Source of the DNA: a virus
Virus record (IMG/VR): IMGVR_UViG_3300037323_000018
Coordinates: 1 to 46,298 of that record
Strand: one strand, 5' to 3'
Length of the DNA stretch: 46,298 nucleotides
How positions within the stretch are numbered: position 1 is the first letter of the stretch; the number at the start of each line of letters is the position of its first letter. The position numbers and the translations under genes are program-made. The notes beneath the pieces were generated by a model. It ran no database searches, was not told the DNA's origin, and was given only the letters and a program-made list of their open reading frames with translations. This document shows positions 6,692 to 25,411 of the stretch, in pieces.

Positions 6692-10792
<4,101 letters not shown>

Positions 10793-10797
10793 AACTA

Positions 10798-11133
10798 ATG
10801 GCAGCACTTAATGTATTCAGAACCGTAACGGCCAGCATTACGACTGCCGGAGCTATTATCTATACGGCACCAGCAGAGTACTCATCGATTATTTTGACGG
10901 CTCAGCTAGCTAATGTAACAACTACATCGGGTACATTTACTTTTTCGCATATAAGTGCTGACGGACTTGTTACTACAGAGCTTGCAAAAGATTTCTTAGT
11001 TGCTGGCAATGACTCATCCACAGCCACCACAGGTAAGCTAGTGCTGGAAACAGGACAAAAGATTAGAGTGTCTGCAAATGCCGACAATAAATTTAAGCTA
11101 GTGTTAAGCATTCTAGAGAGTTCAAATGCCTAA
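10798..11133 (+). CDS. Small beta-rich putative virion protein
   Basis: A 111-residue protein rich in Thr, Ser, Ala and Val with alternating hydrophobic residues ([20 protein letters not shown]), expected to form a beta-sandwich. No catalytic motif, signal peptide or membrane span is seen. It starts 6 bases after the long fibre gene and overlaps the next fibre gene by 8 bases, so the three are translationally linked. Position suggests a fibre-associated or decoration protein; that is inference. Confidence 0.75.
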
Positions 11134-11929
11134 TAATCTTTCTGGAAAAGTAAAAAAGGTCTCACCTCTAGAGGTAAGCCCGGATCGTTATGAACTACTC
11201 GAGCTAGCAGAAGCCGAGCCAGACCTTGGCGCACCAACTGGACCAGAAGACGGTATCCTGGCTTCTACTGCACTTGGCGTTCGCTTCTGGGCAACTACAG
11301 AAGACTTTACCGGAGAGACGGGACCTACGGGTCCTATAGGTGTTACTGGTCCAATTGGACCCGACGGTGGACCTACGGGGCCTACTGGTCCTACTGGTCC
11401 TACTGGACCAGATGGAAAATTTTCTACAGAAGATACAGTCCCTCCTGTAGGAACGAACGAGGGAGAGGCCTGGTTCGATTCAGAAACTGGAAGAATTTAC
11501 GTTTACTACGATGGATACTGGGTTGAGTCTGCAAGTTCTATTGCAGGAGCAACAGGACCAACCGGACCTCAAGGTATTCAAGGACCAACAGGGCCTACCG
11601 GACCGGGGTTCTACAATCTAACCAACAATTCATATACAAGCTCCCCTGTACTGCTGTCTTCCGTGGACTCAGGGAAAGTTATACAAATTAACTTTGCTTC
11701 TGCAGGGACTTTAATTATCCCAGCAGATGCTACATTTAACTTCCCTATCGGTACTCAGATGGTAATTTTCCAATTAGGACCGGGAAGAATAACTTTTGCT
11801 AGGGAGACAGCCGGGATGAATCTTTATTTTGAGGGTGGAAGAGCCGTAACTGTCGGACAGTACGCAGTAGCGTCTCTAATTAAACTTTCTGCTAATGGAT
11901 GGATTCTAAGCGGAAACCTATCGGTGTAA
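11126..11929 (+). CDS. Short collagen-like tail fibre
   Basis: 267 residues: an N-terminal domain (about 1-65); a GPTGPIG collagen block (about 66-93) whose DNA repeats the start of the long fibre's collagen block; a small domain with [19 protein letters not shown], a motif common in phage fibres; a second short collagen piece (about 142-165); and a C-terminal beta domain of about 100 residues. The N-terminus includes [20 protein letters not shown], likely the virion attachment part. The ATG overlaps the end of the preceding gene by 8 bases. The protein probably forms a second, shorter trimeric fibre or a cap for the long one. Confidence 0.8.
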
Positions 11930-11931
11930 AA

Positions 11932-12852
11932 ATGCTTATATCCCTGCACGGAGTTTTAAACTCTAAAGAGAAAAATCTTTTTCTAAAACTTTGGGGGCAG
12001 GTATTTTCACCCTTTCTATCCACACAAACTATAAGGTCCTCTACGGGTAACGGTCCAGCCAGCAGATATGTTTTTGGGGCCACTTCAGGAGCACTGGCAA
12101 CATCGCTAACCGGATTAACTTGGAACAACCAAACATCAGGATTCGGTACGGACACTATTTTCGCTGCGGCGGCTAGCCCGACGCTCTATGTTATTGGCGG
12201 GTCTGCGGGTAAGATTGCAACTTCTACTGACGGACTTTCTTGGACTCTACGAACAAGTGGTTTTGGGACCAGCCCTATTTTAGGTCTCACATATCACGCA
12301 CCGTCTGGACAATATATTGCCGTAGGTGGGGGTGGGAAACTTTCTACCTCACTAAACGGAATTACGTGGAATATAAGAACAAGCTCATTTGGCTTAACAT
12401 TTATTAATGACGTGCATAGCGACGGAGTTAGAGTAACTGCTGTTGGGGATTCTGGAAAACTTGCTACATCATCTACTGGAACAACGTGGGTTCAAGCCAC
12501 AAGTGGGTTCGGCCTAACTAGAATATCTGCAGTTGCGTCAGCCAATGGAACTCTAGTTGCTGTAGGTTCGGCTGGAAAACTTGCTACATCAACAGATGGA
12601 GTTTCTTGGACCCAGAGAAGCAGCTCTTTCGGTTCTATAGCAATTAATGACGTGTCAGGAAGATCTGGGTCTGAATTTGTTGCTGTCGGGGATAGTGGTC
12701 TTTTAGCTATATCCTCAAACGGAGTGTCTTGGTCGCAGTACCCAAGCTCTTTTCTGTCTTCGGAAAGCATACAAACTATATTTATAAATGAGAGTGTTGC
12801 CGTTGCTGGGGGATCTAATGGAAAAATTGCTCGTAGTCAAAGAGAGGTATAA
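11932..12852 (+). CDS. Beta-propeller repeat protein, candidate receptor-binding protein
   Basis: ATG at 11932, two bases after the preceding stop, is preferred to an upstream in-frame ATG at 11899 inside the previous gene; both give the same body. The 306-residue product holds about six repeats of roughly 42-45 residues with the pattern AVGxxGKLATSxDGxxWxxxxSxFG, as in BNR/Ycf48-like propellers with DGxxW loops. A six- or seven-bladed propeller is expected. Such domains at the end of fibre operons often bind glycans. The first 35 residues (ISLHGVLNSKEKNLFLKLWG) are not repeat sequence. The sialidase catalytic arginines cannot be identified, so a binding role is favoured over an enzymatic one. 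Confidence 0.8.
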   Translation: MLISLHGVLNSKEKNLFLKLWGQVFSPFLSTQTIRSSTGNGPASRYVFGATSGALATSLTGLTWNNQTSGFGTDTIFAAAASPTLYVIGGSAGKIATSTDGLSWTLRTSGFGTSPILGLTYHAPSGQYIAVGGGGKLSTSLNGITWNIRTSSFGLTFINDVHSDGVRVTAVGDSGKLATSSTGTTWVQATSGFGLTRISAVASANGTLVAVGSAGKLATSTDGVSWTQRSSSFGSIAINDVSGRSGSEFVAVGDSGLLAISSNGVSWSQYPSSFLSSESIQTIFINESVAVAGGSNGKIARSQREV

Positions 12853-13065: not shown

Positions 13066-14034
13066 GTGGCTGCAATTGATTTTCCCGACTCACCGGTATT
13101 TGGTGACCAAGTTACGGGCGGCGACAACACATGGTTCTGGAATGGTCTTGTATGGGAGATTGTTAAGCAACCTGGCCCAACCGGTCCAACTGGATCTACG
13201 GGACCCATTGGGCCCGCTGGCGGTCCTACGGGACCAACAGGATCTACCGGACCCGTATCAACAACACTAGGACCTACTGGTCCTACAGGGCCTACAGGAA
13301 CAACTGGTTTAACGGGTGGAAAAAGTTCAGTAACCTATACGTTTTCAAATAGCACAGGTGACACTGACCCGGGGGCGGGAACCTTTAGGTTAGACAATGG
13401 AAACGTTGCCCTAGTTTCGTTTTTATATATAGACAATTTTGACTCCTCTGGGTCAAGTCAGACTGGGTGGTATGCAACTTGGGATGACGCAATAACTACC
13501 GGAGTTGTCAAAGGGTACTTAACTATTTCTGCTATAAACAGCACTAACTTCACAGTTCTTACTGTTGTGGGAAATATTGTAAATGGCAGTGGGTATTTTA
13601 AAATTCCTGTTGCGTATATTTCTGGGTCCCTACCTGTAGATCTACAATCTCACGCAATTGAATTTTCTCGATCCGGTGACCAAGGACCAACCGGACCTAC
13701 CGGCCCCATCGGGTTTACTGGACCTACTGGCCCTACCGGACCTAGAGGTCTGTCTGGCCCAACCGGATCGGCTTCTCAGGTCACAGGCCCTACAGGTTCA
13801 ACGGGTCCACAAGGTATTCCGGGAGGACCTACAGGCCCGACAGGTGGACAAGGGTTTACTGGGCCTACGGGACCAACAGGTGCAACCGGGACGGTAAAGA
13901 CCTCTTCCGGTCTAACACCCCCAACTGTCCCTACCCCAACAGCAGGAGACATCTGGTTCAATACAGGAAAGGGAACTTTCTTCTACTACTACAATGATGG
14001 TGACTCTCTGCAGTGGGTTGAAATCCGCAACTAA
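13066..14034 (+). CDS. Collagen-like tail fibre, third of the cluster
   Basis: The GTG start at 13066 is supported by AAGGAG 5 bases upstream. The 322 residues comprise an N-terminal domain ([19 protein letters not shown], about 1-35), a GPTGPTG block, a globular domain (about 85-205, [17 protein letters not shown]) closely related to the internal domain of the long fibre, another collagen block, and a C-terminal motif [20 protein letters not shown]. The WFWNGLVWE and GDIWFN motifs are common in phage fibres and may be trimerisation or attachment parts. The shared domain and collagen style suggest the fibre genes arose by duplication and shuffling. Confidence 0.85.
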
Positions 14035-14067
14035 CAAAAAGTAAAACACACGACGTTATGAGGACAT

Positions 14068-15126
14068 ATGAAGATCGCCGTATATACAATTGCAAAGAAC
14101 GAAGAGCAGTTCGTTGAGCGATGGGCAGAGTCTTGTAAGGACGCCGACTACCGAATTATTCTAGACACTGGCTCAACAGATAGAACAGTAGAGATTGCTC
14201 GCTCGCTTGGAGTAGACGTTCAAGTTAAAGTTGTTGATCCTTGGCGATTTGACAACGCTAGAAATGCCGCAATGGAGATTGTTCCAAAAGATGCGGACTA
14301 CTGTGTTGCATTAGATATGGATGAAGTATTTACAGACGGCTGGCGAGAAGAGATGGAAAAAGCCACCACAACTCGTCCAAGATACGAATACACATGGTCT
14401 TGGAATGATGACGGTTCCCCAGGACTTGTCTACGGCGGGGACAAAATACACGCCCGTAATGGGTATGTATGGCGACACCCTGTACATGAGGTACTAAGTT
14501 TTACAGAGTTAGAAACTCAAGAATGGTTAGGGCTAAAAATACATCACCACCCGGACCACACAAAATCTAGAGGGCAGTACTTCCCCCTCCTAGAACTAGC
14601 TGTTTCGGAGGACCCAGAAGATGACAGAAACGCTCACTACCTGGCCAGAGAATATTTCTTCCACGGAATGAATGAAAAGGCAGTAGCCGAATTTAAAAGA
14701 CACTTAGCTCTTCCTAGAGCATTGTGGCGTCCAGAACGATCCGCTTCGATGAGGTACTTAGCTAAATGTGACAACCCATCAGAAAAAGAATCGTGGCTGC
14801 TTCGAGCTGCTGCGGAATCTCCTGATCGAAGAGAGTCGTGGGTAGAACTTTCTCAGTTGTATTATGATAGGTCTGACTGGACTTCTTGCTATAGTGTTAG
14901 TAGTCGCGCACTTAGAATCACAGAAAAGCCGTTGGAGTATATCTGCGATGCAAATGCTTGGGGAGCCGTCCCCCACGACATGGCTGCAATCTCTTCATAT
15001 AGATTAGGCTTGTATGACGTGTCGGTGGTACATGCAACTAACGCTTTAGATATTGAACCAGACAATGCGAGATTGATCAAGAACTTAGAGTTTTGTGTAT
15101 CGGCCTCAATAAGAGATAAGGAGTAG
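14068..15126 (+). CDS. Family-2 glycosyltransferase with TPR-like C-terminus
   Basis: 352 residues. The N-terminal GT-A domain has YTIAKNEEQFVERW, the nucleotide-binding ILDTGSTDRTVEIA (residues 31-44) and the metal-binding DMD at 83-85 (ALDMDEVF), then WRHPVHEVL. The C-terminal 130 residues look like tetratricopeptide helices (AAAESPDRRESWVELSQLYY, SYRLGLYDVSVVHATNALDI), which in such enzymes hold the acceptor protein. It should transfer a sugar from a nucleotide-sugar to a protein or glycan. It directly follows three collagen-like fibre genes, so modification of the Gly-Pro-Thr threonines is an attractive inference. Alternatives are alteration of the host surface or glycosylation of other virion proteins. 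Confidence 0.88.
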   Translation: MKIAVYTIAKNEEQFVERWAESCKDADYRIILDTGSTDRTVEIARSLGVDVQVKVVDPWRFDNARNAAMEIVPKDADYCVALDMDEVFTDGWREEMEKATTTRPRYEYTWSWNDDGSPGLVYGGDKIHARNGYVWRHPVHEVLSFTELETQEWLGLKIHHHPDHTKSRGQYFPLLELAVSEDPEDDRNAHYLAREYFFHGMNEKAVAEFKRHLALPRALWRPERSASMRYLAKCDNPSEKESWLLRAAAESPDRRESWVELSQLYYDRSDWTSCYSVSSRALRITEKPLEYICDANAWGAVPHDMAAISSYRLGLYDVSVVHATNALDIEPDNARLIKNLEFCVSASIRDKE

Positions 15127-15131
15127 AAGTA

Positions 15132-15443
15132 ATGAGTTTAGATGTAACATGGAAGATTAAAAAAATGGAGTGGGACGAGGATACTGGAGGAGTGCTGTCT
15201 ATCTCCTGGGCAGTAGAAGTTTCAGATGGAGAGCAGTCAGTTGATACTCCAGGAACTTCCAGGTTCTCTCCAGAAGCTTATTCCCCTGCTTTTATCCCTC
15301 TGGACTCTCTTACAGAGCAGAAGGCCATTGAGTGGGTAAAGACTGCCGTATATATGCCGGAAAAAGTTGAAGAACGAGCCATAAAAAGATTTAACGAAAG
15401 TACTGGAATAGTTAGTGTTGTTTCCGGGATTCCTTGGTCTTAG
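15132..15443 (+). CDS. Conserved-looking small protein, DUF7936-like
   Basis: A 103-residue protein starting 5 bases after the glycosyltransferase stop, with AAGGAG at 15118-15123. The pattern TWKIKKMEWDEDTGGVLSIS, then SWAVEVSDGE, then FIPLDSLTEQKAIEWVKTAV resembles small proteins of aquatic phages that I recall as DUF7936; this is from memory and not checked. Beta strands followed by a C-terminal helix are expected. Its 3' end overlaps the convergent WhiB gene by 32 bases. Function unknown. Confidence 0.7.
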   Translation: MSLDVTWKIKKMEWDEDTGGVLSISWAVEVSDGEQSVDTPGTSRFSPEAYSPAFIPLDSLTEQKAIEWVKTAVYMPEKVEERAIKRFNESTGIVSVVSGIPWS

Positions 15444-15948
15444 CTAACTTCTCTCTTTTTTCTTTTCTTTCTTTATCTCTTTCTGATTTAACTGCTTTAT
15501 AGTTTTCTACGGCGTTTGCGCTAGTCCTACTTCTCCAAGAAAACCCGCATTCGGTACAGGTAACTACTTTAGCAGTAGTCCATCTGCCACCACCAGGAAC
15601 GTCTTCAACAGATACCTCTAGTTTTTGCGGCCAAGCCGTACAATATGGGCAGTTGGGGTATCGTCTTCTCCGTGTCTCTTCTCCGTTAAAAGACACTGAC
15701 AAGGTTCTTCTAAGCTCTACCTCATCTTTACCGCCCCATACCCCCCAAATTTGTCGGTGTTCTAAGGCCCACTGGAGGCAGTCTTTTCTTACCGGACAAG
15801 AGAAGCACATGTTTTTTGCTTCGTATTTCTCTTCAAAGACTTTAGAAAAAAAGTTGTTCATATACTTTTGATTTTCTGGTTTAGCGCACTCTGCTTTTCT
15901 TTGCCATTGTAAGCTTTTAGCAGGAGTCCACACCCCGTAATAATACAC
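15412..15948 (-). CDS. WhiB-family regulator with C-terminal zinc ribbon
   Basis: 178 residues. WhiB signature: C21, then C48-x2-C51-x5-C57 (CFSCPVRKDC), followed by the GVWGG turn at 69-73 and a basic region. These four cysteines bind a [4Fe-4S] cluster in known WhiB/Wbl proteins, which act with the principal sigma factor. C-terminally, CPYC (100-103) and CTEC (131-134) form a second metal site of zinc-ribbon type, and the tail is highly charged (SERDKERKEKREKLAKTKES). The start is GTG at 15948, needed to include the first cysteine; no good ribosome-binding site is seen. WhiB proteins are almost confined to Actinobacteria and their phages. The protein probably redirects host transcription. 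Confidence 0.85.
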   Translation of the reverse strand: MYYYGVWTPAKSLQWQRKAECAKPENQKYMNNFFSKVFEEKYEAKNMCFSCPVRKDCLQWALEHRQIWGVWGGKDEVELRRTLSVSFNGEETRRRRYPNCPYCTAWPQKLEVSVEDVPGGGRWTTAKVVTCTECGFSWRSRTSANAVENYKAVKSERDKERKEKREKLAKTKESRKQH

Positions 15949-16648: not shown

Positions 16649-16912
16649 TCAGACCAGTAAAGCCTTATTGCGCCGTCTACGTCTGAGAAGGGATCGTTCT
16701 CTGTTGTTGAGGCCACCCCATACCCCAAATCTTTCCTTCTCTAGACCCCACTCGAGGCAGTCTAGTTGGTGGACACACCCGCCACATATCTTTTTTATTT
16801 CCTTCTTTTGTTCTTTTGTAGTCTCTAGTCCGTCGTCTTCTGTATAGAAGCCTGTGGTGTCCTCTCCCCTGCAGTTAGGTGTCTCAAATTCCCAAGGAGG
16901 TTTTATTAACAT
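16649..16912 (-). CDS. Second WhiB-family regulator (short)
   Basis: 87 residues: C14 (NCRGED), then CGGCVHQLDC (C43, C46, C52) and GVWGG (63-67), followed by an arginine-rich tail (RERSLLRRRRRNK). This is the complete four-cysteine WhiB core plus a basic DNA-contacting end. AAGGAGG lies within the preceding coding end, and the ATG shares one base with the stop of the preceding gene. A phage with two WhiB proteins can split roles between early host takeover and late control. This one lacks the C-terminal zinc ribbon of the 15412-15948 protein. Confidence 0.88.
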   Translation of the reverse strand: MLIKPPWEFETPNCRGEDTTGFYTEDDGLETTKEQKKEIKKICGGCVHQLDCLEWGLEKERFGVWGGLNNRERSLLRRRRRNKALLV

Positions 16913-17220
16913 TATTCAGCGGCTCCGACTTCGTAGCCGCAGCCTGCGTACCCTGCGATGTCAATCCATGTGTCAGGTTGATATCCCGTTTTTGCGGCGT
17001 AGCGTGCCATTTTTAGGGCAACCATACACATTGCCACGTCTTCTTCCGTAACTTCAGTGCTTAAAACTACAGACCATATTCTAGCAATTCTTCTAAAATT
17101 TTCTGACGGTGGTCCGTATTGTACATTTCTTTCTGAGTTAATAAGTCGTGCTGCTTCTCTTAGTGCTTCTACCCTTAGAGGAGAGGATTCTTCTACTATA
17201 GGTGCTTCAGATTCGCTCAT
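16912..17220 (-). CDS. DUF6378-like phage protein
   Basis: 102 residues with the conserved pattern ALREAARLINSERNVQYGPP, NFRRIARIWSVVL, EEDVAMCMVALKMARYA and WIDIAGYAGCGYE, which matches the family I know as DUF6378: small, all-helical proteins found in many phages. The ATG overlaps the end of the upstream gene (ATGA). It is encoded between unknown small genes and a WhiB regulator. The helical DxxGY pattern recalls MazG-like nucleotide pyrophosphohydrolases, but the catalytic ExxE motif is not evident, so no enzyme activity is claimed. Confidence 0.75.
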   Translation of the reverse strand: MSESEAPIVEESSPLRVEALREAARLINSERNVQYGPPSENFRRIARIWSVVLSTEVTEEDVAMCMVALKMARYAAKTGYQPDTWIDIAGYAGCGYEVGAAE

Positions 17221-17426
17221 ATATTTTTTATCCTAACGATAACGTCGGCTTTGTAAGTGAACTCTGCTTCAAAATCTGTGTCTTCCTCTACAAAAAATTC
17301 ATACTGCGACTTTGGTTCTTCTTCTCCGTCAGAAAGATTTAAATATAATAAAACAAATTCTCTGGCCTTATCTTCTAGCTCGAGATTTGAATCTCCAGAA
17401 ACAGAAAAGTGTAGAGTTTTTGTCAC
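17217..17426 (-). CDS. Small acidic protein of unknown function
   Basis: 69 residues, GTG start at 17426 sharing a base with the stop of the preceding gene (TAGTG). Alternating strands and acidic stretches (SDGEEEPKSQYEFFVEEDTD) with a basic last strand (KADVIVRIKNI). The tight overlaps on both sides support it as a real gene. No recognised family. Confidence 0.6.
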   Translation of the reverse strand: MTKTLHFSVSGDSNLELEDKAREFVLLYLNLSDGEEEPKSQYEFFVEEDTDFEAEFTYKADVIVRIKNI

Positions 17427-17854
17427 TACTTAACAAGCTTTTCTAACATGTGGGGTGCGTAGTGAGCTCCATCAAGTTCTGGAGTCTTTCCATCAATTGT
17501 TTTAACGATAATGTCTCCGTACCTGACCCCAACAACTTTTCCTACCCGACCGTTATGAATTTTTCCTAGGTTGTCGGAAAATATGTTTGACTTAACTCTA
17601 ACAATATTTGTAACTATAATCTGCCCGGGTCGCGCATCTACCCAAGTTCCTGAAAGATTGTCTATTGTACCTTCTACTAAGGCATGGCCTAGAGCAAGTT
17701 TTGAAAAAATTTCAATAGTGTTTTTTGCCGTCTCTTCTTTGTGGTTCATTGTTTCCCAAACCTCTAGGAGTCGTAGAACAGACGTCCCAACAGTTTGAGT
17801 TACCTTGGCGTCTGTCATTTGATCTCGTACCCAATCCATATTTATTTCGGACAT
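17426..17854 (-). CDS. Unknown protein with a KOW/SH3-like C-terminal half
   Basis: 142 residues: a helical N-terminal half (MDWVRDQMTDAKVTQTVGTS, EETAKNTIEIFSKLALGHAL) and a beta-rich second half (GRVGKVVGVRYGDIIVKTID) with a glycine-valine pattern like KOW or SH3 barrels. It starts 6 bases after the stop of the GT-B-like gene, with AGTAGG upstream. A nucleic-acid or polymerase-binding role would fit the fold guess but is not shown. Confidence 0.65.
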   Translation of the reverse strand: MSEINMDWVRDQMTDAKVTQTVGTSVLRLLEVWETMNHKEETAKNTIEIFSKLALGHALVEGTIDNLSGTWVDARPGQIIVTNIVRVKSNIFSDNLGKIHNGRVGKVVGVRYGDIIVKTIDGKTPELDGAHYAPHMLEKLVK

Positions 17855-17860
17855 AAAGAC

Positions 17861-18877
17861 CTACTCTCTTTCTACAGCGTTGTTAGTTAATTCTACTGAT
17901 TTTTCCCAAGAAAGCACGTTGGATTTATAACTTTCTTTTTGTTTAAATGCTAGCTTTTGTCTATCACTAGCAGACATTTCCTCTATGTAGTGGGGTAGAT
18001 TGTTCCAACTATCACCAAGCACACCGCTAATTTTCCAATCGGGCACAACTGGAACACCATTGTTTAAGCTATACGATAGATATGGGGTCCAGGAAGTGTT
18101 TAAATCTTTTTGTATAGATATCAAGCACCCAGTGGAATTATTGATTCGTAAAACAACTTCTTCATACTTCTCCCAGTAACTTTTTCTTGCAGATATTATT
18201 TCATAGGAGATAACCTTACTTATGTCTCTAGTCCAAGACGTGTCTAAAGAATCTGCAACCCAGTAAGTGTTCTCATTTGACAAAGATTTTACGGGGTAAG
18301 GTAGATTGTCTAAAAGTATGGAGTCATAGTTAACCCCTACTGACTTATCAGAAGAGACATTGTTTATCTGATCCGACAGAGAGTTTTTGTTGCTCCAGGG
18401 AAGTTCTGGGTAAATTGTAGTGGGCCACTTTTCTGTGTATAACATGTTCAGAGACCTCATCAATCTTCTGTTTATATCTGTATCTGTAGCTTTCTTGTAG
18501 TCTTTTCTTTTTGCATAGAACGGTTTCACTAAAGTGTCTGGAGCTTTTATGATTGAGTTAATACTGCTCAAGATCATTTTAGGGTTTGGTGAGTCTACAA
18601 ATAGCGTTAGGTTGTTTAGGCTATGGGCATAATCTATAACAGACAGTGCTCCGTACGCTCTATTAGAGGAGAGACTAGTGGGGGGAGAAATGCCTACAAT
18701 AACAGAATCAAAATCTTCTAAGTATTCTTTTGTGAGAGATACTGATGAGTTGATCCATGTAACGTCATTGCCCGCAAATACCAATGCCTTGTTTAGTAGA
18801 AAGGCAAATGTGTGCCTTTCTTGGTCTTTTGTGTTAGGACTATGTGATGCCGTAGACCCTGTAAGTAGTATTTTCAT
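17861..18877 (-). CDS. GT-B-like protein, putative glycosyltransferase
   Basis: ATG at 18877 is chosen because GGAAGGACAAG lies just upstream; an in-frame start 12 codons earlier would run through the terminator. The 338 residues begin KILLTGSTASHS, a Rossmann-type strand-loop, then FAFLLNKALVFAGNDVTWIN and FDSVIVGISPPTS. The C-terminal half has STGCLISIQKD, then the YLSYSLNNGVPVVPDW segment typical of the donor-binding part of GT-B enzymes, and ends in helices. The layout is like phage-encoded DNA beta-glucosyltransferases, but similarity is only at pattern level. No enzyme making hydroxymethylated bases is seen in the window, so the acceptor (modified DNA, protein or glycan) is unknown. Confidence 0.5.
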   Translation of the reverse strand: MKILLTGSTASHSPNTKDQERHTFAFLLNKALVFAGNDVTWINSSVSLTKEYLEDFDSVIVGISPPTSLSSNRAYGALSVIDYAHSLNNLTLFVDSPNPKMILSSINSIIKAPDTLVKPFYAKRKDYKKATDTDINRRLMRSLNMLYTEKWPTTIYPELPWSNKNSLSDQINNVSSDKSVGVNYDSILLDNLPYPVKSLSNENTYWVADSLDTSWTRDISKVISYEIISARKSYWEKYEEVVLRINNSTGCLISIQKDLNTSWTPYLSYSLNNGVPVVPDWKISGVLGDSWNNLPHYIEEMSASDRQKLAFKQKESYKSNVLSWEKSVELTNNAVERE

Positions 18878-18888
18878 CTTGTCCTTCC

Positions 18889-18941: not shown

Positions 18942-19469
18942 TTAAAACGGGGCTGACGGTGCAGTCTCGCTTAGGGTTGGTGCCGGTGCAGGGGCTGGAG
19001 CCGGTGCAGGGGCAGGGGCAGGGGCTGGTGCTGGTGCAGCAGCAGCAGCGGTAGTTGCCTGTTGTTGCGCTGGTAGGTACTTCTTGACCTCGTTACGACG
19101 GTCACCGTTCCAAGTCCGTGTGGCTACTACCCCACGGTACTTACGGTTTAGAAGAACCTGCTCAATCTGAGCGTTTGTTGGGTTTTGCTTAAAGTACTCT
19201 TGGTTTAGACCAAGGGCCGACATCTTCGAAAAGAAAATCCCTAGTGCCGTTGGGTTTCCAGTAGTAATAACAAGGTTGTCCCAAATAAGACGCTTGTTGT
19301 GCGGGCCTCCATCAACCTGAGACTTCAGACTGAACATGGTCTTGCCAGACTGCGACTGTTTTGCAACTGCCTCCAGGACCATAAGATCATAGTCACCGTC
19401 GGGTAGCGGTTCAAAGGAAACGCTGTCGCCTGCTTCTTTGAGGAGATCTCCCCAGTTAGTTGTACTCAT
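18942..19469 (-). CDS. Single-stranded DNA-binding protein, DUF669-like
   Basis: 175 residues. The N-terminal ~130 residues (WGDLLKEAGDSVSFEPLPDG, YDLMVLEAVAKQSQSGK, FSLKSQVDGGPHNKRLIWDN) match the OB-like phage proteins of DUF669 type found beside Sak4-like ATPases. An alanine-proline linker (about 142-164) follows and a short tail ending SETAPSAPF, whose final Pro-Phe resembles the tip bacterial SSBs use to recruit partners, though the usual acidic residues are few. It is the last gene of the recombination block, 17 bases after the Sak4-like gene, and is followed by a strong terminator. It probably coats single strands for polymerase and recombinase. Confidence 0.8.
   Translation of the reverse strand: MSTTNWGDLLKEAGDSVSFEPLPDGDYDLMVLEAVAKQSQSGKTMFSLKSQVDGGPHNKRLIWDNLVITTGNPTALGIFFSKMSALGLNQEYFKQNPTNAQIEQVLLNRKYRGVVATRTWNGDRRNEVKKYLPAQQQATTAAAAAPAPAPAPAPAPAPAPAPAPTLSETAPSAPF
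18979..19050. repeat. GC-rich hexamer-like repeat encoding an Ala-Pro linker
   Basis: A run of GGGGCT/GGTGCA/GGGGCA-type units (plus strand) encodes alternating alanine and proline in the SSB-like protein, then an alanine stretch. It is far more G+C-rich than its surroundings and prone to slippage in multiples of two codons. Confidence 0.85.
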
Positions 19470-19486: not shown

Positions 19487-20287
19487 CTATTTGTCGTAGG
19501 GCGCGGTTTGCGCCTTCTTTGTTGCTTCTTCGGCTGCCTTAGCTGCCTCTTGCTTTTGTCCAAAAACGATATCTAACATTCGTTCTATAGACAAGTTTTC
19601 TTGCTCAACAATTGCGCCGAGCCTTCCCTGAACGCGCTCACCTGCTTCGTACTGGTTTGTGCGTTCTACATACATACGGCGTGTTTTAAAAGCCGACTGC
19701 ATGGGATCAGGGTTTTGTACGTCCTCAACAACTAGTGCTCCAAGGATGTCGTAGAAATACGGGGCTTGGATAGCAAGTTGACCTTGCAGGTAAGGACGAG
19801 CCCTACCATCTTGCCCTGTACGAGCCATTGCAGTCAGTACAACCGCTTCGAGCGGATTTACCGGGTGCATAGTTAAATCTCTCAGGTCGCGGAGGAGACC
19901 GCCCATGTGACGAAGTAGTTCGCCCCACTGCTGCATCTTCATCTGCTCATTACCTGCAATGCTGTCAACACACTTAACTTGCAGTTCTGAGATTGAGTCA
20001 ATAATTAGACTCTTAAATTGGTGTTTACCAGACTGCAACCACTGATACACCTTAATCACGGTGTCGTAGGTGTGAACTACAACCACGCATGTATCCCATG
20101 TTCCATCTGCTACTGGCGGTTCTTCTCTTAACGGGTCCCAGTACTTAATGATGATGGGAAGAAAGCGGTGACCGCCCTCAACATCAAGCATTAATCGTGG
20201 GTATGGAGCCGTGACAGCAAAGCTAGATTTACCTACCTTTGACTCTCCGTACACCATTGCCGTAAGAGAACGTTGGACATCTACCAT
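19487..20287 (-). CDS. Sak4-like RecA-fold ATPase (single-strand annealing/recombination)
   Basis: 266 residues with Walker A YGESKVGKSS (13-22), a hydrophobic Walker B strand FKSLIIDSISEL (about 91-102) and MTAMARTG-type sensor residues, giving a RecA-like core without the full RecA C-domain. Phage proteins of this kind (Sak4, AAA_24) anneal or pair single strands with help from the neighbouring SSB, which fits the gene order here. The C-terminal tail is alanine and charge-rich (QEAAKAAEEATKKAQ). It starts 3 bases after the Cas4-like gene, with AGGAAG upstream. Confidence 0.85.
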   Translation of the reverse strand: MVDVQRSLTAMVYGESKVGKSSFAVTAPYPRLMLDVEGGHRFLPIIIKYWDPLREEPPVADGTWDTCVVVVHTYDTVIKVYQWLQSGKHQFKSLIIDSISELQVKCVDSIAGNEQMKMQQWGELLRHMGGLLRDLRDLTMHPVNPLEAVVLTAMARTGQDGRARPYLQGQLAIQAPYFYDILGALVVEDVQNPDPMQSAFKTRRMYVERTNQYEAGERVQGRLGAIVEQENLSIERMLDIVFGQKQEAAKAAEEATKKAQTAPYDK

Positions 20288-20290
20288 ACG

Positions 20291-21211
20291 TCACTCACTT
20301 CCTTTTTTGTCTGACTCGTAGTATGCGTACGGGTCTTTTTCTTCAAACATCTCAGTAAGCGCCTGTTCCGCTGAACTTCCGTCATCGAACATGGTACATA
20401 TTGAGAAGAATTGACATTTCCATTTGCAATCTCTTGTCGGAGTTGGGTAGGCCACAAGTGCATGGCTTTCACCGTCGTCAAGAGCCTTACGAACTCTCAT
20501 AAGGTCGGTAATCACTCCGTGAATACGATCCCAAAATGAACGTAACGTAAAGATATTGTGTCGCACTTCTATTTGATCGTAGAAAGGTGGCGTAGCGCGT
20601 GCGGTTCGCTTTACCTTTTTTAGCATAGTAAATATGCCACCCTCTGATCTGGTATCTTCTCCCTCTTTCATTTGCTCAAGGAGCATGTAAGTAAGGACTT
20701 GCTCATTCATTGGAGCAAGATTTGCAAAGTCTGAGAGTGAACCCCCAACGGTTTTAAAATCGCGGAACATCCGGACTCCGTCAATCTTTCGACGGACGCG
20801 CATATCAAGTTTTCCTTGGAGTTCGACTTCTCCATTGAAAAGCGGTATAGAGATTTTTTCTTCTGTTGAGATAATATCTAACTCAGCGTCAATGCCGTTC
20901 TCTTCTACCCACTCTAGGTAGCCTTCGAGCATGATTCGACCTAACTCTGCTTCTGAGTCAAGTGCGGTTGTGTCACGCAATTCCGTCTCTAGCGTTAGAC
21001 GATCTTTTTTAACCAATTCTTCGTGGGCATCTAGCAGGTAGACACCCTGAGCGTAGTAGTCATCTAACGCAGCGTGGATACGAGTCCCCATAGCCAGAGG
21101 GCCTGTATGGCTTTTTTGTTTTGGCTGCATGGCTCTGTAATACGATAAGAACCATTTTCTTCGACATTCTTTGAATGTCTGGATTTCAGAGTTTGAAAGT
21201 CTTACGGTCAT
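20291..21211 (-). CDS. Cas4-like RecB-family exonuclease with Fe-S cysteines
   Basis: 306 residues of the PD-(D/E)XK superfamily: H46 in MGTRIHAALDDY, D136 in LQGKLDMRV, D151-x-K153 in FRDFKTVG, and Q171-x3-Y175 in QVLTYML. The four cysteines expected for a [4Fe-4S] cluster are present: C16 near the N-terminus and DCKWKCQFFSIC (C262, C266, C272). In Cas4 and AddB the cluster staples the two ends of the domain. The enzyme should resect DNA ends to give single strands for the Sak4-like protein. Its ATG overlaps the stop of the SNF2 gene (ATGA). No CRISPR array or other cas gene is present, so it is a recombination nuclease here. Confidence 0.88.
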   Translation of the reverse strand: MTVRLSNSEIQTFKECRRKWFLSYYRAMQPKQKSHTGPLAMGTRIHAALDDYYAQGVYLLDAHEELVKKDRLTLETELRDTTALDSEAELGRIMLEGYLEWVEENGIDAELDIISTEEKISIPLFNGEVELQGKLDMRVRRKIDGVRMFRDFKTVGGSLSDFANLAPMNEQVLTYMLLEQMKEGEDTRSEGGIFTMLKKVKRTARATPPFYDQIEVRHNIFTLRSFWDRIHGVITDLMRVRKALDDGESHALVAYPTPTRDCKWKCQFFSICTMFDDGSSAEQALTEMFEEKDPYAYYESDKKGSE

Positions 21212-23037
21212 AGTTTCCCTGCCTTATCGTCTTTAAGAAGTTGAATAAGTTTATCTTTGTCACGAACAATCTGTTCGAAATTATCCGCTTTTGTGTCTAG
21301 CACTTGAATTACACGTTCTTCTATAGACCCTTCAGTAACATAGTCTGTGATAACAATAGAGTCATGGATTTCTGAACCAATCCTGTGTACTCGGTCTAGG
21401 GCTTGTTTGTAGTCAACCAATGACCAAGGTCTCTGTAGCATAATAAGTCTACGGGCTGCTGTCAAGGTAATACCAACTCCACCCGCTTGAGCAGTAAACA
21501 AAATCCACTTTATTTTTCCGGACTGAAAATCTTCAACGGCCTTTTGACGTTCGTCTTCGTCTTGAGCACCAGTAATCAATCCGTGATCAATTTTAGCTTT
21601 TGTCATAGCAGTGCTAAGGAGCTCAATTAGTTGGCGAGACACAGCGCACACCGCAACGGAGTCTTCGCCAAAGTCTCCACTTTTAATGTCGTCCATAAGT
21701 TGATCTACTTTGCATGATGGCTCCGTGAGGACTGCCTTAGATTCTCCTGAAGATTCGTCCACCACAATTTCCGCGAATGAAGAAGCAAATTGACTTAAGC
21801 GAAGAGTCTGTGTAAGAACGCTAGGAGCCGTTAAGATCTCTCCATCCTGTAACTCTGCAATCATATGGTCTCGCATCTGATTATATGCTTTCTTTTGCTT
21901 AGTAGACATCTCAACATCTCGTCGCTCATTGACAACTTCTGGGAGCCAAGGAAGTACTGTTTTTTTAAGCATTCTCCTCATACGAGGGTTTACAGCCTTA
22001 TAAAAGTCTTCCTGCATATGTGGCTTGACGCCAAGAACCATCAGACCGCCAAAAGCGTTCATCATTGTGTCAATGTACATGTCAATCCACTTTGTTTTGC
22101 TTGGCCAGTCTTCTGGCGAGAGCCAATGGAGTATGGACCACATGTCCACAACATTGTTTGCTATGGGAGTTCCGGTAAGAGCAAATCTAATCTTTGCATC
22201 TCCCGTAGCAGACCACAGAGCGCGAGTTTGTTTACTCTTAGGTTCTTTAGATCTATGGATTTCGTCTGCCACAACAGACCCAAAGTTAATTTTATTTAGT
22301 TCTTTAATATGGACTTCGCATCGATTAGCAGAAACTTTTTCGTCAAGGCCACCGCAAGCAACACATCTTGTTAGGGCAATAGAGCCAAACCCAGCCAAGC
22401 GAGAGTGCATACGAAGAGACTCCCAGTTAATGATGACTGCCGTTTTTTGATTGGGGTCAGCATCTTCGTCTAAAATCTCATCAAAAAGTTTCTTACGCTT
22501 AGCCGAAGTCCCTTTTACTACTACTGGCTCAACTTCAGGCCACCACATAGCAAACTCTCGTTCCCAGTTTTTCTTAAGAGTGTTGGGACAAACAATTAGT
22601 GCAGGGAATACAGTCTCCCCGTCCTCATGCAACCCCTTTAGCGCACGAATTGCTGTGGCGGTTTTACCAAGCCCTGGTTCGTCGGCAAGAAGGGCCTTTT
22701 TTGCCGTCTTAAGGAAGGACACTCCTGCTCGTTGGTGTGGGAACAGGTCTTCGTCCCCCTCTCCCTCAACAAGCTCTCTTAGTGCCATGCTTGGGTTAAT
22801 CTGATTGGTTACAAGATCTGTAGCCCACTGGGCCAATCCGTCTTCAATAACGAGATGCTCTCTGAACGTAGACCTAAGCGCTAGGCAACTTGCCCAACTT
22901 AGGGGGACACGCCACACCTTTTCTGCTGTGTTCCAAGAAGACCCCGGAATACTCTTACAAAGCTCCTTATACCGCCATTCAGCATCAATTCTGATGTGCT
23001 TTCCGGTAATTAGATCTAAATCTACAGAAACTGTCAT
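21208..23037 (-). CDS. SNF2-family DNA helicase/translocase
   Basis: 609 residues from ATG 23037, which has AAGGGACAAAA upstream; an earlier in-frame codon at 23073 lies within the promoter region and is rejected. Motifs in order: Q-like LFPHQRAGVSFL, motif I ADEPGLGKTATA, motif II VVADEIHRSK (DEIH), motif III ALTGTPIAN, motif V TAQAGGVGITLTAA and motif VI DRVHRIGS. A cysteine cluster, CVACGGLDEKVSANRCEVH, between motifs Ia and II may bind zinc. The N-terminal 85 residues look like the HARP-like substrate domain of annealing helicases. It likely remodels forks or recombination intermediates with the neighbouring nuclease and annealing ATPase. Confidence 0.9.
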   Translation of the reverse strand: MTVSVDLDLITGKHIRIDAEWRYKELCKSIPGSSWNTAEKVWRVPLSWASCLALRSTFREHLVIEDGLAQWATDLVTNQINPSMALRELVEGEGDEDLFPHQRAGVSFLKTAKKALLADEPGLGKTATAIRALKGLHEDGETVFPALIVCPNTLKKNWEREFAMWWPEVEPVVVKGTSAKRKKLFDEILDEDADPNQKTAVIINWESLRMHSRLAGFGSIALTRCVACGGLDEKVSANRCEVHIKELNKINFGSVVADEIHRSKEPKSKQTRALWSATGDAKIRFALTGTPIANNVVDMWSILHWLSPEDWPSKTKWIDMYIDTMMNAFGGLMVLGVKPHMQEDFYKAVNPRMRRMLKKTVLPWLPEVVNERRDVEMSTKQKKAYNQMRDHMIAELQDGEILTAPSVLTQTLRLSQFASSFAEIVVDESSGESKAVLTEPSCKVDQLMDDIKSGDFGEDSVAVCAVSRQLIELLSTAMTKAKIDHGLITGAQDEDERQKAVEDFQSGKIKWILFTAQAGGVGITLTAARRLIMLQRPWSLVDYKQALDRVHRIGSEIHDSIVITDYVTEGSIEERVIQVLDTKADNFEQIVRDKDKLIQLLKDDKAGKL

Positions 23038-23063
23038 TTTTGTCCCTTCATGTATATACGGAG

Positions 23064-23092
23064 ATACTAGCACAGAAAAGTTTTTAGTTCAA
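23064..23092 (-). promoter_or_regulatory. Predicted extended -10 promoter for the SNF2-nuclease-Sak4-SSB operon
   Basis: On the minus strand TTGAAC (23092-23087), a 17-base spacer ending in TGC, and TAGTAT (23069-23064) form a -35, an extended -10 TGN and a -10. It is 27 bases upstream of the chosen SNF2 ATG, in a 72-base gap between the resolvase and the helicase. Confidence 0.55.
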
Positions 23093-23109: not shown

Positions 23110-23586
23110 TTAATCTAGTAGGGCTGTTGGCTTCCATCCCAGTTTAACTAGGGCCAGAAGACCATGCCGTATTGCGTCATTAGCGTGCCCCTCACCGCCC
23201 TTGTGCCACAATTCGAGCGTTTTCAGCGCAGGGTTAGGGAACATATTTTTGGCGTTCACAGGGGCTTGAAATGCGATATTTAGGGGGTCGTAGCCTGATC
23301 GACGGCAGATGTGTTTTAACACGCCAATATTCTCTAAACTCCAAGGAGCCTGAGAGTTTCGTACCGTCTGGGCGTTTATAACAAAAGATTCACATGCCAC
23401 AACGTACTCCCCCAATTCGGAGCAAATTTTAAACCCTTCTTCGACACTGTCCGCAAATATGTCCGGTTGAACCTCGGTGGACCAAACTAAGTCTGGAGTA
23501 GGATTCCCACTTTCTGTACCCCATTTAAGTACAGCAATCCCGCTTGCTTTTCCCGGGTCTACTGATAGAACTAAAAGATTACTCAT
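23110..23586 (-). CDS. RuvC-like Holliday junction resolvase
   Basis: 158 residues from ATG 23586, preceded by GGGGGCAG. The RNase H-type acidic residues are at expected places: D10 in VLSVDPGKASGIAV, the glutamate in VVACESFV, and the C-terminal HANDAIRHGLLAL with the last aspartate. Such phage RuvC proteins cut branched DNA before packaging. The start overlaps the polymerase stop by 8 bases, indicating coupled translation. Confidence 0.85.
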   Translation of the reverse strand: MSNLLVLSVDPGKASGIAVLKWGTESGNPTPDLVWSTEVQPDIFADSVEEGFKICSELGEYVVACESFVINAQTVRNSQAPWSLENIGVLKHICRRSGYDPLNIAFQAPVNAKNMFPNPALKTLELWHKGGEGHANDAIRHGLLALVKLGWKPTALLD

Positions 23587-25411
23587 ATTTCTGCCCCCAG
23601 TTTTCAAAAGGACCGTCAACTCCGGCAGTAAGAGGAACTGCCCAACCCTCGTTTGTGGTCATACATTCCTGAACAGTTCTCATAATTTCTTGTACGTCCT
23701 TCCTAGGAGCCTGCAAAACAATTTCATCATGTACGGGAACAATCATTAGTTCTGTCAAGTCTGCCATGTCCATCTTTACTAAGTTCATTTTAAAAACTTC
23801 AGCTGCACTTGCTTGAACAAGATAATTAGTTAGCGAGTACACTCGATCATCGTCGCAAGGGAGTCTTCTACCGGTAACAGTTCTAACATATCCTTGACCC
23901 TCTGCATTGAGTCGTTTAGTTCCTATGTCTTCAATTTGTTTTTGTAACTGCTTTACACCCGGATATGCACGATCAAATGCGTCTACCACGGACTTCATTT
24001 GCTCCTCAGGTACTCCTGCTGTGACTGCCATTTTTGCTACACCTGCTCCGTAGAGCTTGCCGTAAATTACACCTTTGACTAACTGTCTACGAGGGTCACT
24101 TTTTTGCGCCGTTGGGTCTTGATAGATGTCTCGCAAAATCTCTGTAAACGCATCTCCGCCAGTTTCGTCCGCTTGCTTGAACAACCCAATTAGCTGTGGG
24201 TCGTGGCTCATTGCTGCGGTAAGACGAAACTCAACTTGGTCTAGGTCAGAAGAAATAATTACATGGTCTTCGTCCTTGGGAATAAAAGCCCTACGAACGG
24301 TAGCGTCTCCGGTAGGTAGAGTTTGTAGGGCCGGATCGGTTATAGACATCCTTCCGGTCCTCGCGCCAAGAGTCCGTACAGAAGGGTGCAACACACCGTC
24401 CACATGCTTGTCCATAAAGTTGGAGAAGTAGGTAGATGCCAGTTTTGCCGCTTTTCTTTGTTGCAGTACCGCAGTTGCTAATTCTTTTACCTCGCTATTA
24501 CCCGTAATTATCAACTTTTCCATCTGCTCTTTAGATGCAGACTTTTGTCCAGATGGAGTTACCTCGGTAATTACTCCACCTAATCTATCTACTAAGCGAA
24601 CTAACTGAGGATTACTAGTTATGCTTGCACCTTCATATTTTTTTGATGCCCACTCTTTAACTTTCTCTGTGTAGTCAATAAGTTCGTCATACTTTTTCTT
24701 TGAGTAGTCAAGGTCTACACGCGCACCATTAATTTCCATACGAGTGGTTATTTTTCGTGTAGCCATTTCAAGTTCGTAGGCTTTTTCGTACTGACTTCCT
24801 GGGCCACACTCCTTATAGAATTTTTCCCAAAGACGCATAGTAATGACAGGATCAAGAGCACCGTATTGCCAGTACGGACCAAAATTTACTGGCGTAGTTC
24901 CCCAAGTCCAGCCATTCTCTGCCAGTTGAGTACTAAGTGTGGCCTGCAAGCTTGCGGATCTGGGGTCTACATGTAGTGAGGCTAATCTTTTTAGAGCAAC
25001 AGACCCTATCGGATCTATTAGGTGCGCCATGATCATTGTGTCATGCGCGTTATGCCAAGGAATTTCCCATTTAGATTTTACAGCAAACCATCTAGCTTCA
25101 AAGGCAATGTTGTGGCACACAACTGGTCCGCTAAAATTTTTAGTGAATTCGTAGAATACCCCAGACCATTCATCCCAAGGGATGGCCCAGCCTTGCATAC
25201 CGTCACCTATCTGAACTAGACGGATGTTTCCATGCCAAGGAGATAAGGCATCGTCCTTATGATTACCGGGGATTTCTCCGGTCTCGATATCAACACCTAC
25301 TGCATCATAAGGTCGGCGTTCTGAGGCCCATGCAAGAAATTTTGACGCCATTTCTACACTATCTACCAAGTGTAGTTTTACATCTGAGAGGCCGTTCGTA
25401 GCTTCAGTCAC
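23579..25411 (-). CDS. Family-A DNA polymerase with 3'-5' exonuclease domain
   Basis: 610 residues, GTG start at 25411 with CAGGAG upstream. Exonuclease motif I is AVGVDIETGEI (D41, E43), motif II VCHNIAFEARW (Glu in place of the common Asp), motif III YGALDPVITM. Polymerase motif A is ISSDLDQVEFRL, motif B RRQLVKGVIYGKLYGAG and motif C VPVHDEIVL. There is no 5' nuclease domain, as is usual for phage PolA enzymes. In motif A the usual YSQIE is LDQVE. It replicates the phage genome using primers from the Prim-Pol. It is the first gene of the polymerase-resolvase unit. Confidence 0.95.
   Translation of the reverse strand: MTEATNGLSDVKLHLVDSVEMASKFLAWASERRPYDAVGVDIETGEIPGNHKDDALSPWHGNIRLVQIGDGMQGWAIPWDEWSGVFYEFTKNFSGPVVCHNIAFEARWFAVKSKWEIPWHNAHDTMIMAHLIDPIGSVALKRLASLHVDPRSASLQATLSTQLAENGWTWGTTPVNFGPYWQYGALDPVITMRLWEKFYKECGPGSQYEKAYELEMATRKITTRMEINGARVDLDYSKKKYDELIDYTEKVKEWASKKYEGASITSNPQLVRLVDRLGGVITEVTPSGQKSASKEQMEKLIITGNSEVKELATAVLQQRKAAKLASTYFSNFMDKHVDGVLHPSVRTLGARTGRMSITDPALQTLPTGDATVRRAFIPKDEDHVIISSDLDQVEFRLTAAMSHDPQLIGLFKQADETGGDAFTEILRDIYQDPTAQKSDPRRQLVKGVIYGKLYGAGVAKMAVTAGVPEEQMKSVVDAFDRAYPGVKQLQKQIEDIGTKRLNAEGQGYVRTVTGRRLPCDDDRVYSLTNYLVQASAAEVFKMNLVKMDMADLTELMIVPVHDEIVLQAPRKDVQEIMRTVQECMTTNEGWAVPLTAGVDGPFENWGQKYE

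What the first reader, a model, noticed from the sequence alone, without database searches (positions are those of the whole stretch)
17861..18877. GT-B-like protein with the layout of phage DNA glucosyltransferases
The N-terminal strand KILLTGSTA, the VIVGISPPTS strand and the C-terminal NNGVPVVPDW donor-like segment follow the order seen in T4-type beta-glucosyltransferase. If its acceptor is DNA, the genome would carry glucosylated bases, with the base-modifying enzymes outside the window or supplied otherwise.
Basis: inference. Interest (0 to 1): 0.5.

Follow-up and report, generated by a model that had tools for sequence, protein, structure and literature searches.

The report
Phage sugar-transferase beside DNA replication genes
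A gene of unknown function in an actinobacterial virus appears to make a sugar-attaching enzyme shaped like the one phage T4 uses to coat its DNA with glucose; many relatives carry it beside T4-like genes for making a modified cytosine, but this virus and its closest kin show no such genes, so what the enzyme decorates here is an open, testable question.

Summary
Window 17861-18877 (-) is an intact 338-aa gene without Pfam or PHROG match. Its AlphaFold2 model (42 sequences, pLDDT 93.1, pTM 0.91) is a GT-B glycosyltransferase; T4 beta-glucosyltransferase is Foldseek's best PDB match (E 7.3e-6). VIA-align ties T4 BGT with SenB and GlgM, so the fold alone does not show a DNA acceptor.

The gene ("A") lies in the replication operon of large actinophages. 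Upstream of it many relatives have a paralogue ("B"). Of 80 B-loci kept (of 231 found), 77 have A after B; 3 are cut off. Where contigs of the 78 scored are long enough, B-loci carry a gp56-type dUTPase/dCTPase (53 of 53), a dCMP-hydroxymethylase-like enzyme plus deaminase (17 of 17) and a C5-methyltransferase (27 of 27): a T4-like hydroxymethylcytosine pathway.

The window and 15 other records have A without B or the dUTPase; none has the hydroxymethylase either (0 of 16; four span 92-138 kb). A remains under purifying selection in such lineages. 14 of the 16 avoid C-containing palindromes; the window and its sister G014 do not.

So: GT-B supported; a DNA acceptor is plausible for the family, unproven and in doubt for this phage.

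The parts
17861..18877 (-). GT-B-fold glycosyltransferase gene ('family A'), 338 aa
   Evidence: ORF; AF2 model pLDDT 93.1, pTM 0.91; Foldseek/VIA matches to T4 BGT and other GT-B enzymes
18882..18888 (-). Shine-Dalgarno-like GGAAGGA, 4 bases before the ATG
   Evidence: seen directly in the sequence
18848..18874 (-). N-terminal strand segment KILLTGSTA (residues 2-10)
   Evidence: strand 2-7 in the model; T6 and G7 invariant in 42 of 42
18674..18703 (-). VIVGISPPTS segment (residues 59-68)
   Evidence: strand 58-63; V61 and G62 invariant in 42 of 42
18593..18595 (-). codon of Asp95, invariant, at the end of strand 90-94; candidate catalytic base
   Evidence: 42 of 42; aligned with T4 BGT D100 (weak, P 0.014), not in the low-confidence full-length path
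18035..18064 (-). C-terminal donor-site-like segment NNGVPVVPDW (residues 272-281)
   Evidence: lies in the stretch with the profile match to the BGT family (238-336); W281 invariant
17426..17854 (-). conserved 142-aa neighbour (cluster c1), unknown function
   Evidence: cluster of 70 proteins in 70 of 82 loci
18942..19469 (-). SSB-like protein (DUF669; PHROG single-strand binding)
19487..20287 (-). RecA-like AAA ATPase (AAA_24)
   Evidence: the DSL-LC01 member of the cluster is annotated RecA-like
20291..21211 (-). PD-(D/E)XK nuclease
21208..23073 (-). SNF2-type DNA helicase
23110..23619 (-). RuvC-like resolvase (by clustering with the DSL-LC01 gene so annotated)
   Evidence: PHROG 1981, unknown function
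23579..25411 (-). family A DNA polymerase
16912..17220 (-). DUF6378 protein (PHROG name 'phosphofructokinase')

Best explanation
The protein is a sugar-nucleotide-dependent glycosyltransferase of the GT-B fold, from a phage family (A) that lives in the replication operon of large actinobacterial phages. Shown by computation: fold, conservation, operon context, purifying selection. Inferred: it binds a UDP-type sugar in the C-terminal domain and uses an N-terminal carboxylate, probably Asp95, as the base. In many relatives A is the constant partner of a paralogue B inside a T4-like pathway (dCMP hydroxymethylase, dCMP deaminase, gp56-type dUTPase/dCTPase, C5-methyltransferase), where the two most likely glycosylate hydroxymethylcytosine in DNA. 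In the window's lineage that pathway and the second transferase are not found while A stays intact. There A most likely acts on an acceptor not made by that pathway: another modified base, or a non-DNA target.
For: Model pLDDT 93.1, pTM 0.91; PDB best match T4 BGT, T4 AGT third; Z 16.7 over 298 residues. B (403 aa) independently matches SenB and T4 BGT, and A and B profiles are homologous (E 8e-40). Profile score of A vs the BGT family 38.0; combined A+B profile 33.8 vs a maximum of 21.4 in 60 column-shuffled controls. A follows B in 77 of 80 B-loci, 3 cut off. B-loci with room: dUTPase_2 53 of 53, TS-like plus deaminase 17 of 17, C5-MTase 27 of 27. 12 of 12 TS homologues (two of them identical) carry T4 gp42 Y96, R123, D145, C148, D179, Y218, D145 and D179 being hydroxymethylase/dCMP determinants (PMC6400193, passages read). 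The 16 records with A but neither B nor dUTPase_2 beside it: TS-like 0 of 16, C5-MTase 0 of 16, TET/JBP over cut-off 0 of the 11 searched. dN/dS 0.05-0.20 in 11 pairs of such A genes.
Against: GT-B proteins use many acceptors; SenB, GlgM and other GT4-like enzymes score as high as BGT, and the BGT homologues score 43.6 against an unrelated phage GT4-like family. Most records are fragments, so a missing pathway is firm only for four A-only records of 92-138 kb. The loci were found through A or B, so 'A is always there' is partly by construction. Asp95 as base rests on one weak alignment. In the TS homologues S94 is Gly (12 of 12), R124 is Gln in 9 of 12 and the E60 position does not match in the alignment used. 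The window itself shows no strong palindrome avoidance, and T4, a C-modified control, avoids GATC and not AT-only sites.
Confidence: 0.55

Rival explanations
1. It is a DNA glycosyltransferase in this phage too (T4-like): hydroxymethylated or otherwise activated bases come from an enzyme outside the window or from an unrecognised one, and A glycosylates them, fully or at some sites.
For: Fold and layout close to T4 BGT; position beside replication genes; B-bearing relatives have the hmC pathway; the window and its sister G014 show no strongly avoided palindrome although A-only fragments of similar size (G010, G018, G022, G023) do.
Against: The 16 A-only records lack TS-like and C5-MTase families, and TET/JBP over cut-off in the 11 of them searched (G015 has a weak sub-threshold hit); 14 of 16 avoid a C-containing palindrome; a Pfam scan of 36 of 97 ORFs of the 111-kb A-only record G002 (25 of 35 families shown) named no base hydroxylase.
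Confidence: 0.25
2. A never was the hmC glycosyltransferase. B, or its stand-ins (a GT25-like or another GT4-like gene), decorates hmC; A has always used a different acceptor that all these phages share.
For: Among loci found through A, a second transferase stands near A in all 23 with dUTPase_2 (18 with B; L028, L029, L034, L049 GT25-like; L075 GT38-cluster), and none of these three kinds was seen in the other loci, whereas A is present in both (other parts of those genomes were not searched for GT25/GT38, and many A-only loci have a GT2 gene further off).
Against: B was not seen without A where the contig allows a test (77 of 77 of the best 80 of 231 loci), which suggests that the two work together; T4 itself uses two paralogous DNA transferases (PMC13216743, passages read).
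Confidence: 0.3
3. A-only copies are binding proteins or inactive transferases kept for another role.
For: The window has Tyr269 where 38 of 41 others have Gln, within the donor-side stretch.
Against: The window keeps 48 of 52 strongly conserved columns, Asp95, Lys118, Asp185 and Trp263 among them; dN/dS is low.
Confidence: 0.1

Closest known systems
T4 beta-glucosyltransferase (BGT, GT63)
   Same: GT-B fold, similar length (351 vs 338 aa), best PDB match by Foldseek, gene beside replication genes; in B-bearing relatives a dCMP hydroxymethylase-like gene lies in the same operon
   Different: No significant sequence relation (profile probability 42%, C-terminal third only); the hmC supply is not found in the window's lineage
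T4 alpha-glucosyltransferase (AGT, GT72)
   Same: GT-B fold, Z 14.6; T4 has two DNA transferases, as B and A here
   Different: No profile similarity (score 16.5 against the single AGT sequence)
SenB Se-glycosyltransferase and GT4-type enzymes (GlgM, MshA, PimA)
   Same: Fold match as good as BGT (Z 15.5-16.9)
   Different: Cellular enzymes with other acceptors (from the entry titles); no operon resemblance looked for
T4 hmC pathway (gp42, gp56, deaminase, kinase, two transferases)
   Same: B-bearing relatives have gp42-like (12 of 12 TS homologues with D145, C148, D179), gp56-family (T4 gene 56 itself found with the same model), a deaminase and a kinase-like gene
   Different: Family A DNA polymerase, C5-methyltransferase in the same operon, transferases not related by significant sequence similarity; not found in A-only phages
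MetaGPA modified-cytosine environmental phages (PMC8670742; passages read)
   Same: TS-family and dCMP deaminase domains associated with modified cytosine
   Different: There a carbamoyltransferase caps hmC; here GT-B transferases

Membership tests
GT-B glycosyltransferase superfamily | two-domain GT-B fold, full-length structural match | tested here: met
   (top rows align 265-298 residues, model range 1-338)
GT63 (T4 BGT) | sequence-profile relation to BGT | tested here: inconclusive
   HHalign probability 41.8%, residues 238-336 only; above shuffled controls but not significant
GT63 (T4 BGT) | catalytic Asp100 | tested here: inconclusive
   invariant Asp95 aligned with D100, not in the path; role of D100 recalled
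GT63 (T4 BGT) | Arg191/Arg195, invariant in 7 BGT homologues | tested here: inconclusive
   invariant in A4; no Arg among the invariant columns of A3, but no residue-level overlay was available
GT63 (T4 BGT) | transfer of glucose to hmC in DNA | not testable with these tools
   needs enzyme assay
T4-like hmC-glycosylation system | dCMP hydroxymethylase in the genome | tested here: not met
   0 of 16 A-only records, window included; present in 9 of 9 records with B and in 2 without B (G003, G011) of the 27-record panel. The window is a 46-kb record and may be a fragment
T4-like hmC-glycosylation system | dCTPase/dUTPase of the gp56 family (PF08761) | tested here: not met
   not in the window; in 10 of 27 records, all among the 11 with the TS homologue; T4 control found
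TET/JBP plus glycosyltransferase hypermodification (recalled) | TET/JBP dioxygenase | tested here: not met
   0 of 24 records over the PF12851 cut-off, window included (five of the 16 A-only records were not in that call); weak hits in G012 and G015 lie in frames that look, by eye, like prolyl-hydroxylase-type oxygenases

The most novel reading that the evidence does not exclude
Large actinobacterial phages evolved their own hydroxymethylcytosine-glycosylation system: a T4-like nucleotide pathway joined to a new pair of GT-B transferases (B then A) and a C5-methyltransferase. DSL-LC01 carries a UDP-galactopyranose mutase between the two, which suggests a furanose sugar on DNA. Lineages such as the window's then lost the pathway but kept one transferase, redirected to a new acceptor or a new base.
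Probability: 0.4. Interest if true: 0.75.

Novelty: new variant of a known kind. Interest (0 to 1): 0.52.

Why it matters
It gives a name and a testable role to a conserved gene annotated 'hypothetical protein' in isolated Gordonia phages (Forza, GMA2, GodonK, Sixama). It predicts glycosylated hydroxymethylcytosine in their DNA, while the window's lineage offers a natural loss of the pathway that separates the role of the transferase from cytosine protection. It might also supply new enzymes for labelling hydroxymethylcytosine.

Tried and rejected
Sequence searches for a named family: Pfam and PHROGs gave none for the window protein (over the 11 members of A2, phrog_14998 of unknown function matches 7; Pfam only four unrelated single-member hits); PDB sequence profiles gave hits without any glycosyltransferase. 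The TET route was tested and not supported. ThyX as another source of a hydroxymethyl base: in 4 of 27 records, not in G005/G006. MazG (PF03819) as the name of the neighbouring pyrophosphohydrolase was dropped: 0 of 27 records, while PF08761 fits. UGM as a general partner was dropped: 1 of 27 records. Tad3 (anti-Thoeris) for the 142-aa neighbour: E 0.0034, below cut-off, for the window copy; the G002 member of the cluster does not match it, so I dropped the label. Genes shared by A-only genomes that could replace the hydroxymethylase: among 5 A-only and 5 pathway-bearing records only one small ORF (69-83 aa) was in at least 3 A-only and at most 1 other record (the window, G014 and G015 are short), and its cluster does occur in DSL-LC01 at another threshold. 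A-family relatives in bacterial genomes: none confirmed, with one search pattern. Specificity-determining columns between B-linked and A-only copies: one conservative column. Absence of a family from the VIA list was not used as evidence.

Full report
Observation. The window is a 46,298-base virus record. The minus-strand ORF 17861-18877 codes for 338 aa, with GGAAGGA four bases before the ATG. The nearest named relative is in Actinomycetia phage DSL-LC01 (31% identity); Gordonia phages GMA2, Forza and GodonK match at 25-27%, and Sixama has the same gene as gp125 (its best tblastn hit is the paralogue gp127). In all five the gene is annotated 'hypothetical protein'. DNA-level matches of the surrounding region are to DSL-LC01 and seven Microbacterium phage records, and two WhiB genes lie nearby, so the host is most likely an actinobacterium (inference).

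Fold. 76 IMG/VR loci encode relatives. A 42-sequence alignment has 12 invariant columns, among them T6, G7, Y75, D95, K118, D185, W206, W263 and W281. AlphaFold2 on it gave pLDDT 93.1 and pTM 0.91. Foldseek against the PDB ranks T4 BGT first (1j39, E 7.3e-6, TM 0.53), a chromone glycosyltransferase (UGT) second and T4 AGT third (E 1.3e-3). The VIA-align second look gives SenB 16.9 (265 residues, 3.8 A), T4 BGT 1qkj 16.7 (298, 4.0 A), GlgM 16.0 (284, 4.2 A) and AGT 14.6 (283, 4.0 A); rows within one Z unit are ties. So the GT-B fold is well supported and BGT is among the closest solved structures, but the fold does not single out DNA as acceptor.

Sequence relation to BGT. HHalign of the family against seven BGT sequences gives probability 41.8%, residues 238-336 only, score 38.0; B against BGT gives 12%. 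The combined A+B profile scores 33.8; 60 column-shuffled BGT profiles reach at most 21.4 and the reversed one 16.0. Other targets for the A profile score lower: phage GT4-like 27.8, the single T4 AGT sequence 16.5, GT2 14.9. But the BGT sequences themselves score 43.6 against that GT4-like family, so the signal is a GT-B signal rather than proof of a BGT subfamily. A single-sequence comparison puts invariant Asp95 opposite BGT Asp100 (P 0.014); the low-confidence full-length path does not. That D100 is the catalytic base of BGT is recalled; a D100A mutant structure (1nzd) is.

Operon. Gene calling in 82 loci (window, 76 IMG/VR, 5 named phages; GodonK is in twice) shows, where the contig reaches, the order PolA, RuvC-like, SNF2 helicase, PD-(D/E)XK nuclease, RecA-like, SSB-like, [B], A, [dUTPase_2], a ~140-aa protein, small genes, [C5-methyltransferase], WhiB. 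RecA-like is in 69 of 82 loci, SSB-like in 68, the ~140-aa protein in 70; the rest are short or diverged, and the five Gordonia loci are rearranged. B is a paralogue of A (profile E 8e-40; BLAST matches) whose own model (pLDDT 81, pTM 0.80) also matches SenB and T4 BGT. The neighbour annotated MazG-like or dUTPase is PF08761, and the same model finds gene 56 of T4.

The pathway. Twelve of 48 records have a thymidylate-synthase homologue; two of the twelve are identical. All 12 carry Y96, R123, D145, C148, D179 and Y218 of T4 dCMP hydroxymethylase; S94 is Gly in all 12, R124 is Gln in 9, and the E60 position does not match in this alignment, which is poor in that part. In PMC6400193 (passages read) Asp179 is the determinant for dCMP over dUMP, and Asp145, three residues before the catalytic Cys, is given as a mark of hydroxymethylases within the TS family. 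In five records with the TS homologue compared gene by gene, 5 of 5 also carry a dCMP deaminase and a kinase-like gene; in five A-only records (three of them under 60 kb) 0 of 5 do. In the MetaGPA study (PMC8670742, passages read) TS-family and dCMP-deaminase domains were associated with modified cytosine in environmental DNA.

Linkage. A scan for B found 231 relatives, of which the best 80 loci were kept; at least three of these contigs (L064, L066, and L245 = L036) had already been found through A. Among recognised genes A comes directly after B in 77 of 80; in the other 3 the contig ends within 174 bases of the B frame. For the 78 loci numbered in that scan, where the contig is long enough: dUTPase_2 53 of 53, TS-like plus deaminase 17 of 17, C5-MTase 27 of 27. 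Among the 82 loci found through A or by annotation: with B 18 (dUTPase_2 18 of 18), without B 55 (dUTPase_2 in 4 of the 45 with room), undecided 9 (dUTPase_2 in 1). The five dUTPase_2 cases without a seen B are L028, L029, L049 and L034, with a GT25-like gene, and L075, with a GT38-cluster gene plus genes resembling a kinase, a HAD phosphatase and a sugar nucleotidyltransferase. L069, whose contig is cut, has a deaminase but no B. Thus a second transferase goes with the pathway in the 23 loci, and A goes with or without it. In 27 records searched whole: TS-like 11, dUTPase_2 10, C5-MTase 9, B 9, all within the same 11; Fisher p for dUTPase_2 is 1.3e-6, not corrected for relatedness.

The window's lineage. 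'A-only' means neither B nor dUTPase_2 beside A; the 16 such records of the 27 are also the 16 without the TS homologue. In a maximum-likelihood tree the window falls in a 14-row clade (100/100) with no pathway gene seen in any row; a second A-only set of 21 rows (96/88; L069 with its deaminase is in it) lies elsewhere among pathway-bearing rows, so loss at least twice is the simple reading, though the root is only a midpoint. Four A-only records of 92.7, 110.9, 135.1 and 137.5 kb lack TS-like, dUTPase_2, C5-MTase and TET/JBP families. A is not decaying: the window keeps 48 of 52 strongly conserved columns, differing at 14, 44, 269 (Tyr for Gln) and 331. Eleven A-only pairs have dN/dS 0.05-0.20, two pathway-bearing pairs 0.09-0.11; pairs share sequences, synonymous sites are near saturation in most, two further A-only pairs could not be scored, and none of the pairs includes the window.

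Palindromes as a proxy for protection. With a maximum-order Markov expectation, 14 of 16 A-only records have at least one C-containing 4-base palindrome other than GATC at under 0.6 of expectation (AGCT 0 seen, 299 expected in G015; CCGG 15 seen, 101 expected in G002); the window and its sister G014 have none. Among the 11 records with the TS homologue only G013 does (CTAG 33 of 59); G003 avoids GATC (10 of 363), and DSL-LC01 and G003 avoid AT-only sites (ATAT 0 of 126 and TTAA 0 of 121 in DSL-LC01). Two A-only records, G015 and G020, avoid TTAA as well. Fisher p is 7.7e-5, or 0.005 after collapsing near relatives by hand; the threshold, and setting GATC aside, were my choices after a first look; with GATC counted the TS side is 2 of 11. 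Against: G+C content and hosts differ between the groups, and T4, whose cytosines are known to be modified, avoids GATC (143 of 412, in 120 kb) and does not avoid AT-only sites. The pattern suggests protected cytosines in the pathway-bearing phages and unprotected ones in most A-only phages; it is not a measurement.

Literature. The DSL-LC01 paper (PMC10611076, passages read) reads the UDP-galactopyranose mutase as a cell-wall gene; 'hydroxymethyl' does not occur in its main text. PMC13216743 (passages read) states that the two T4 transferases are GT-B paralogues in families found only in phages. Searches of the open PMC library for glucosyltransferase + hydroxymethylcytosine + actinobacteriophage (no paper), actinophage/hydroxymethylcytosine/DNA modification/Gordonia (five) and GodonK/GMA2/hydroxymethylase/glycosylated DNA/actinobacteriophages (three) listed no paper whose title or shown abstract describes such a system in actinobacterial phages; most of those papers I saw only as listings, and subscription papers are mostly not held.

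Conclusion. For this phage the acceptor is open: the hydroxymethylcytosine supply is not found in its relatives, yet the transferase is kept. I put 0.25 on DNA glycosylation in this phage, 0.3 on A having always had a non-hmC acceptor, and 0.55 on the general statement that it is a GT-B transferase of this DNA-modification family now working without the hmC pathway; these overlap and do not sum to one. The mended counts did not change these odds.

Noticed in passing
L002 (DSL-LC01) 10902-11999: UDP-galactopyranose mutase gene between B and A; suggests a UDP-Galf donor. The family is in 1 of 27 records.
   Followed up: partly
L075 4747-7995: In place of B: a GT38-cluster transferase, a kinase-like (APH, below cut-off), a HAD-like (below cut-off) and a nucleotidyltransferase gene, as if the phage makes its own sugar nucleotide.
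   Followed up: partly
L028, L029, L034, L049: A GT25-like gene (cluster 44; Pfam match 0.035, below cut-off) stands near A where dUTPase_2 is present and B is not seen.
   Followed up: partly
window 13066-15126: Collagen-like (GPT-repeat) gene followed by a GT2-TPR transferase (PHROG 13126); relatives add a tryptophan halogenase and, by eye, prolyl-hydroxylase-like frames, perhaps a virion fibre decorated by hydroxylation and glycosylation.
   Followed up: no
window 17426-17854: Conserved 142-aa protein next to the transferase, its cluster in 70 of 82 loci; unknown function, sub-threshold Tad3 match in the window copy.
   Followed up: partly
window 15412-15948 and 16649-16912: Two WhiB-like regulator genes.
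   Followed up: no
G015, G010, G020, G018, G022 (whole records): AGCT is absent in G015, G010 and G020 (299, 170 and 195 expected), GATC in G010, G018, G020 and G022 (98, 117, 116 and 75 expected): very strong site avoidance.
   Followed up: partly
G012 around 7187-8683: Several frames that look, by eye, like 2OG-Fe(II) prolyl-hydroxylase-type oxygenases, side by side.
   Followed up: no
window 18942-19469: SSB-like protein with an Ala-Pro repeat near its C-terminus.
   Followed up: no
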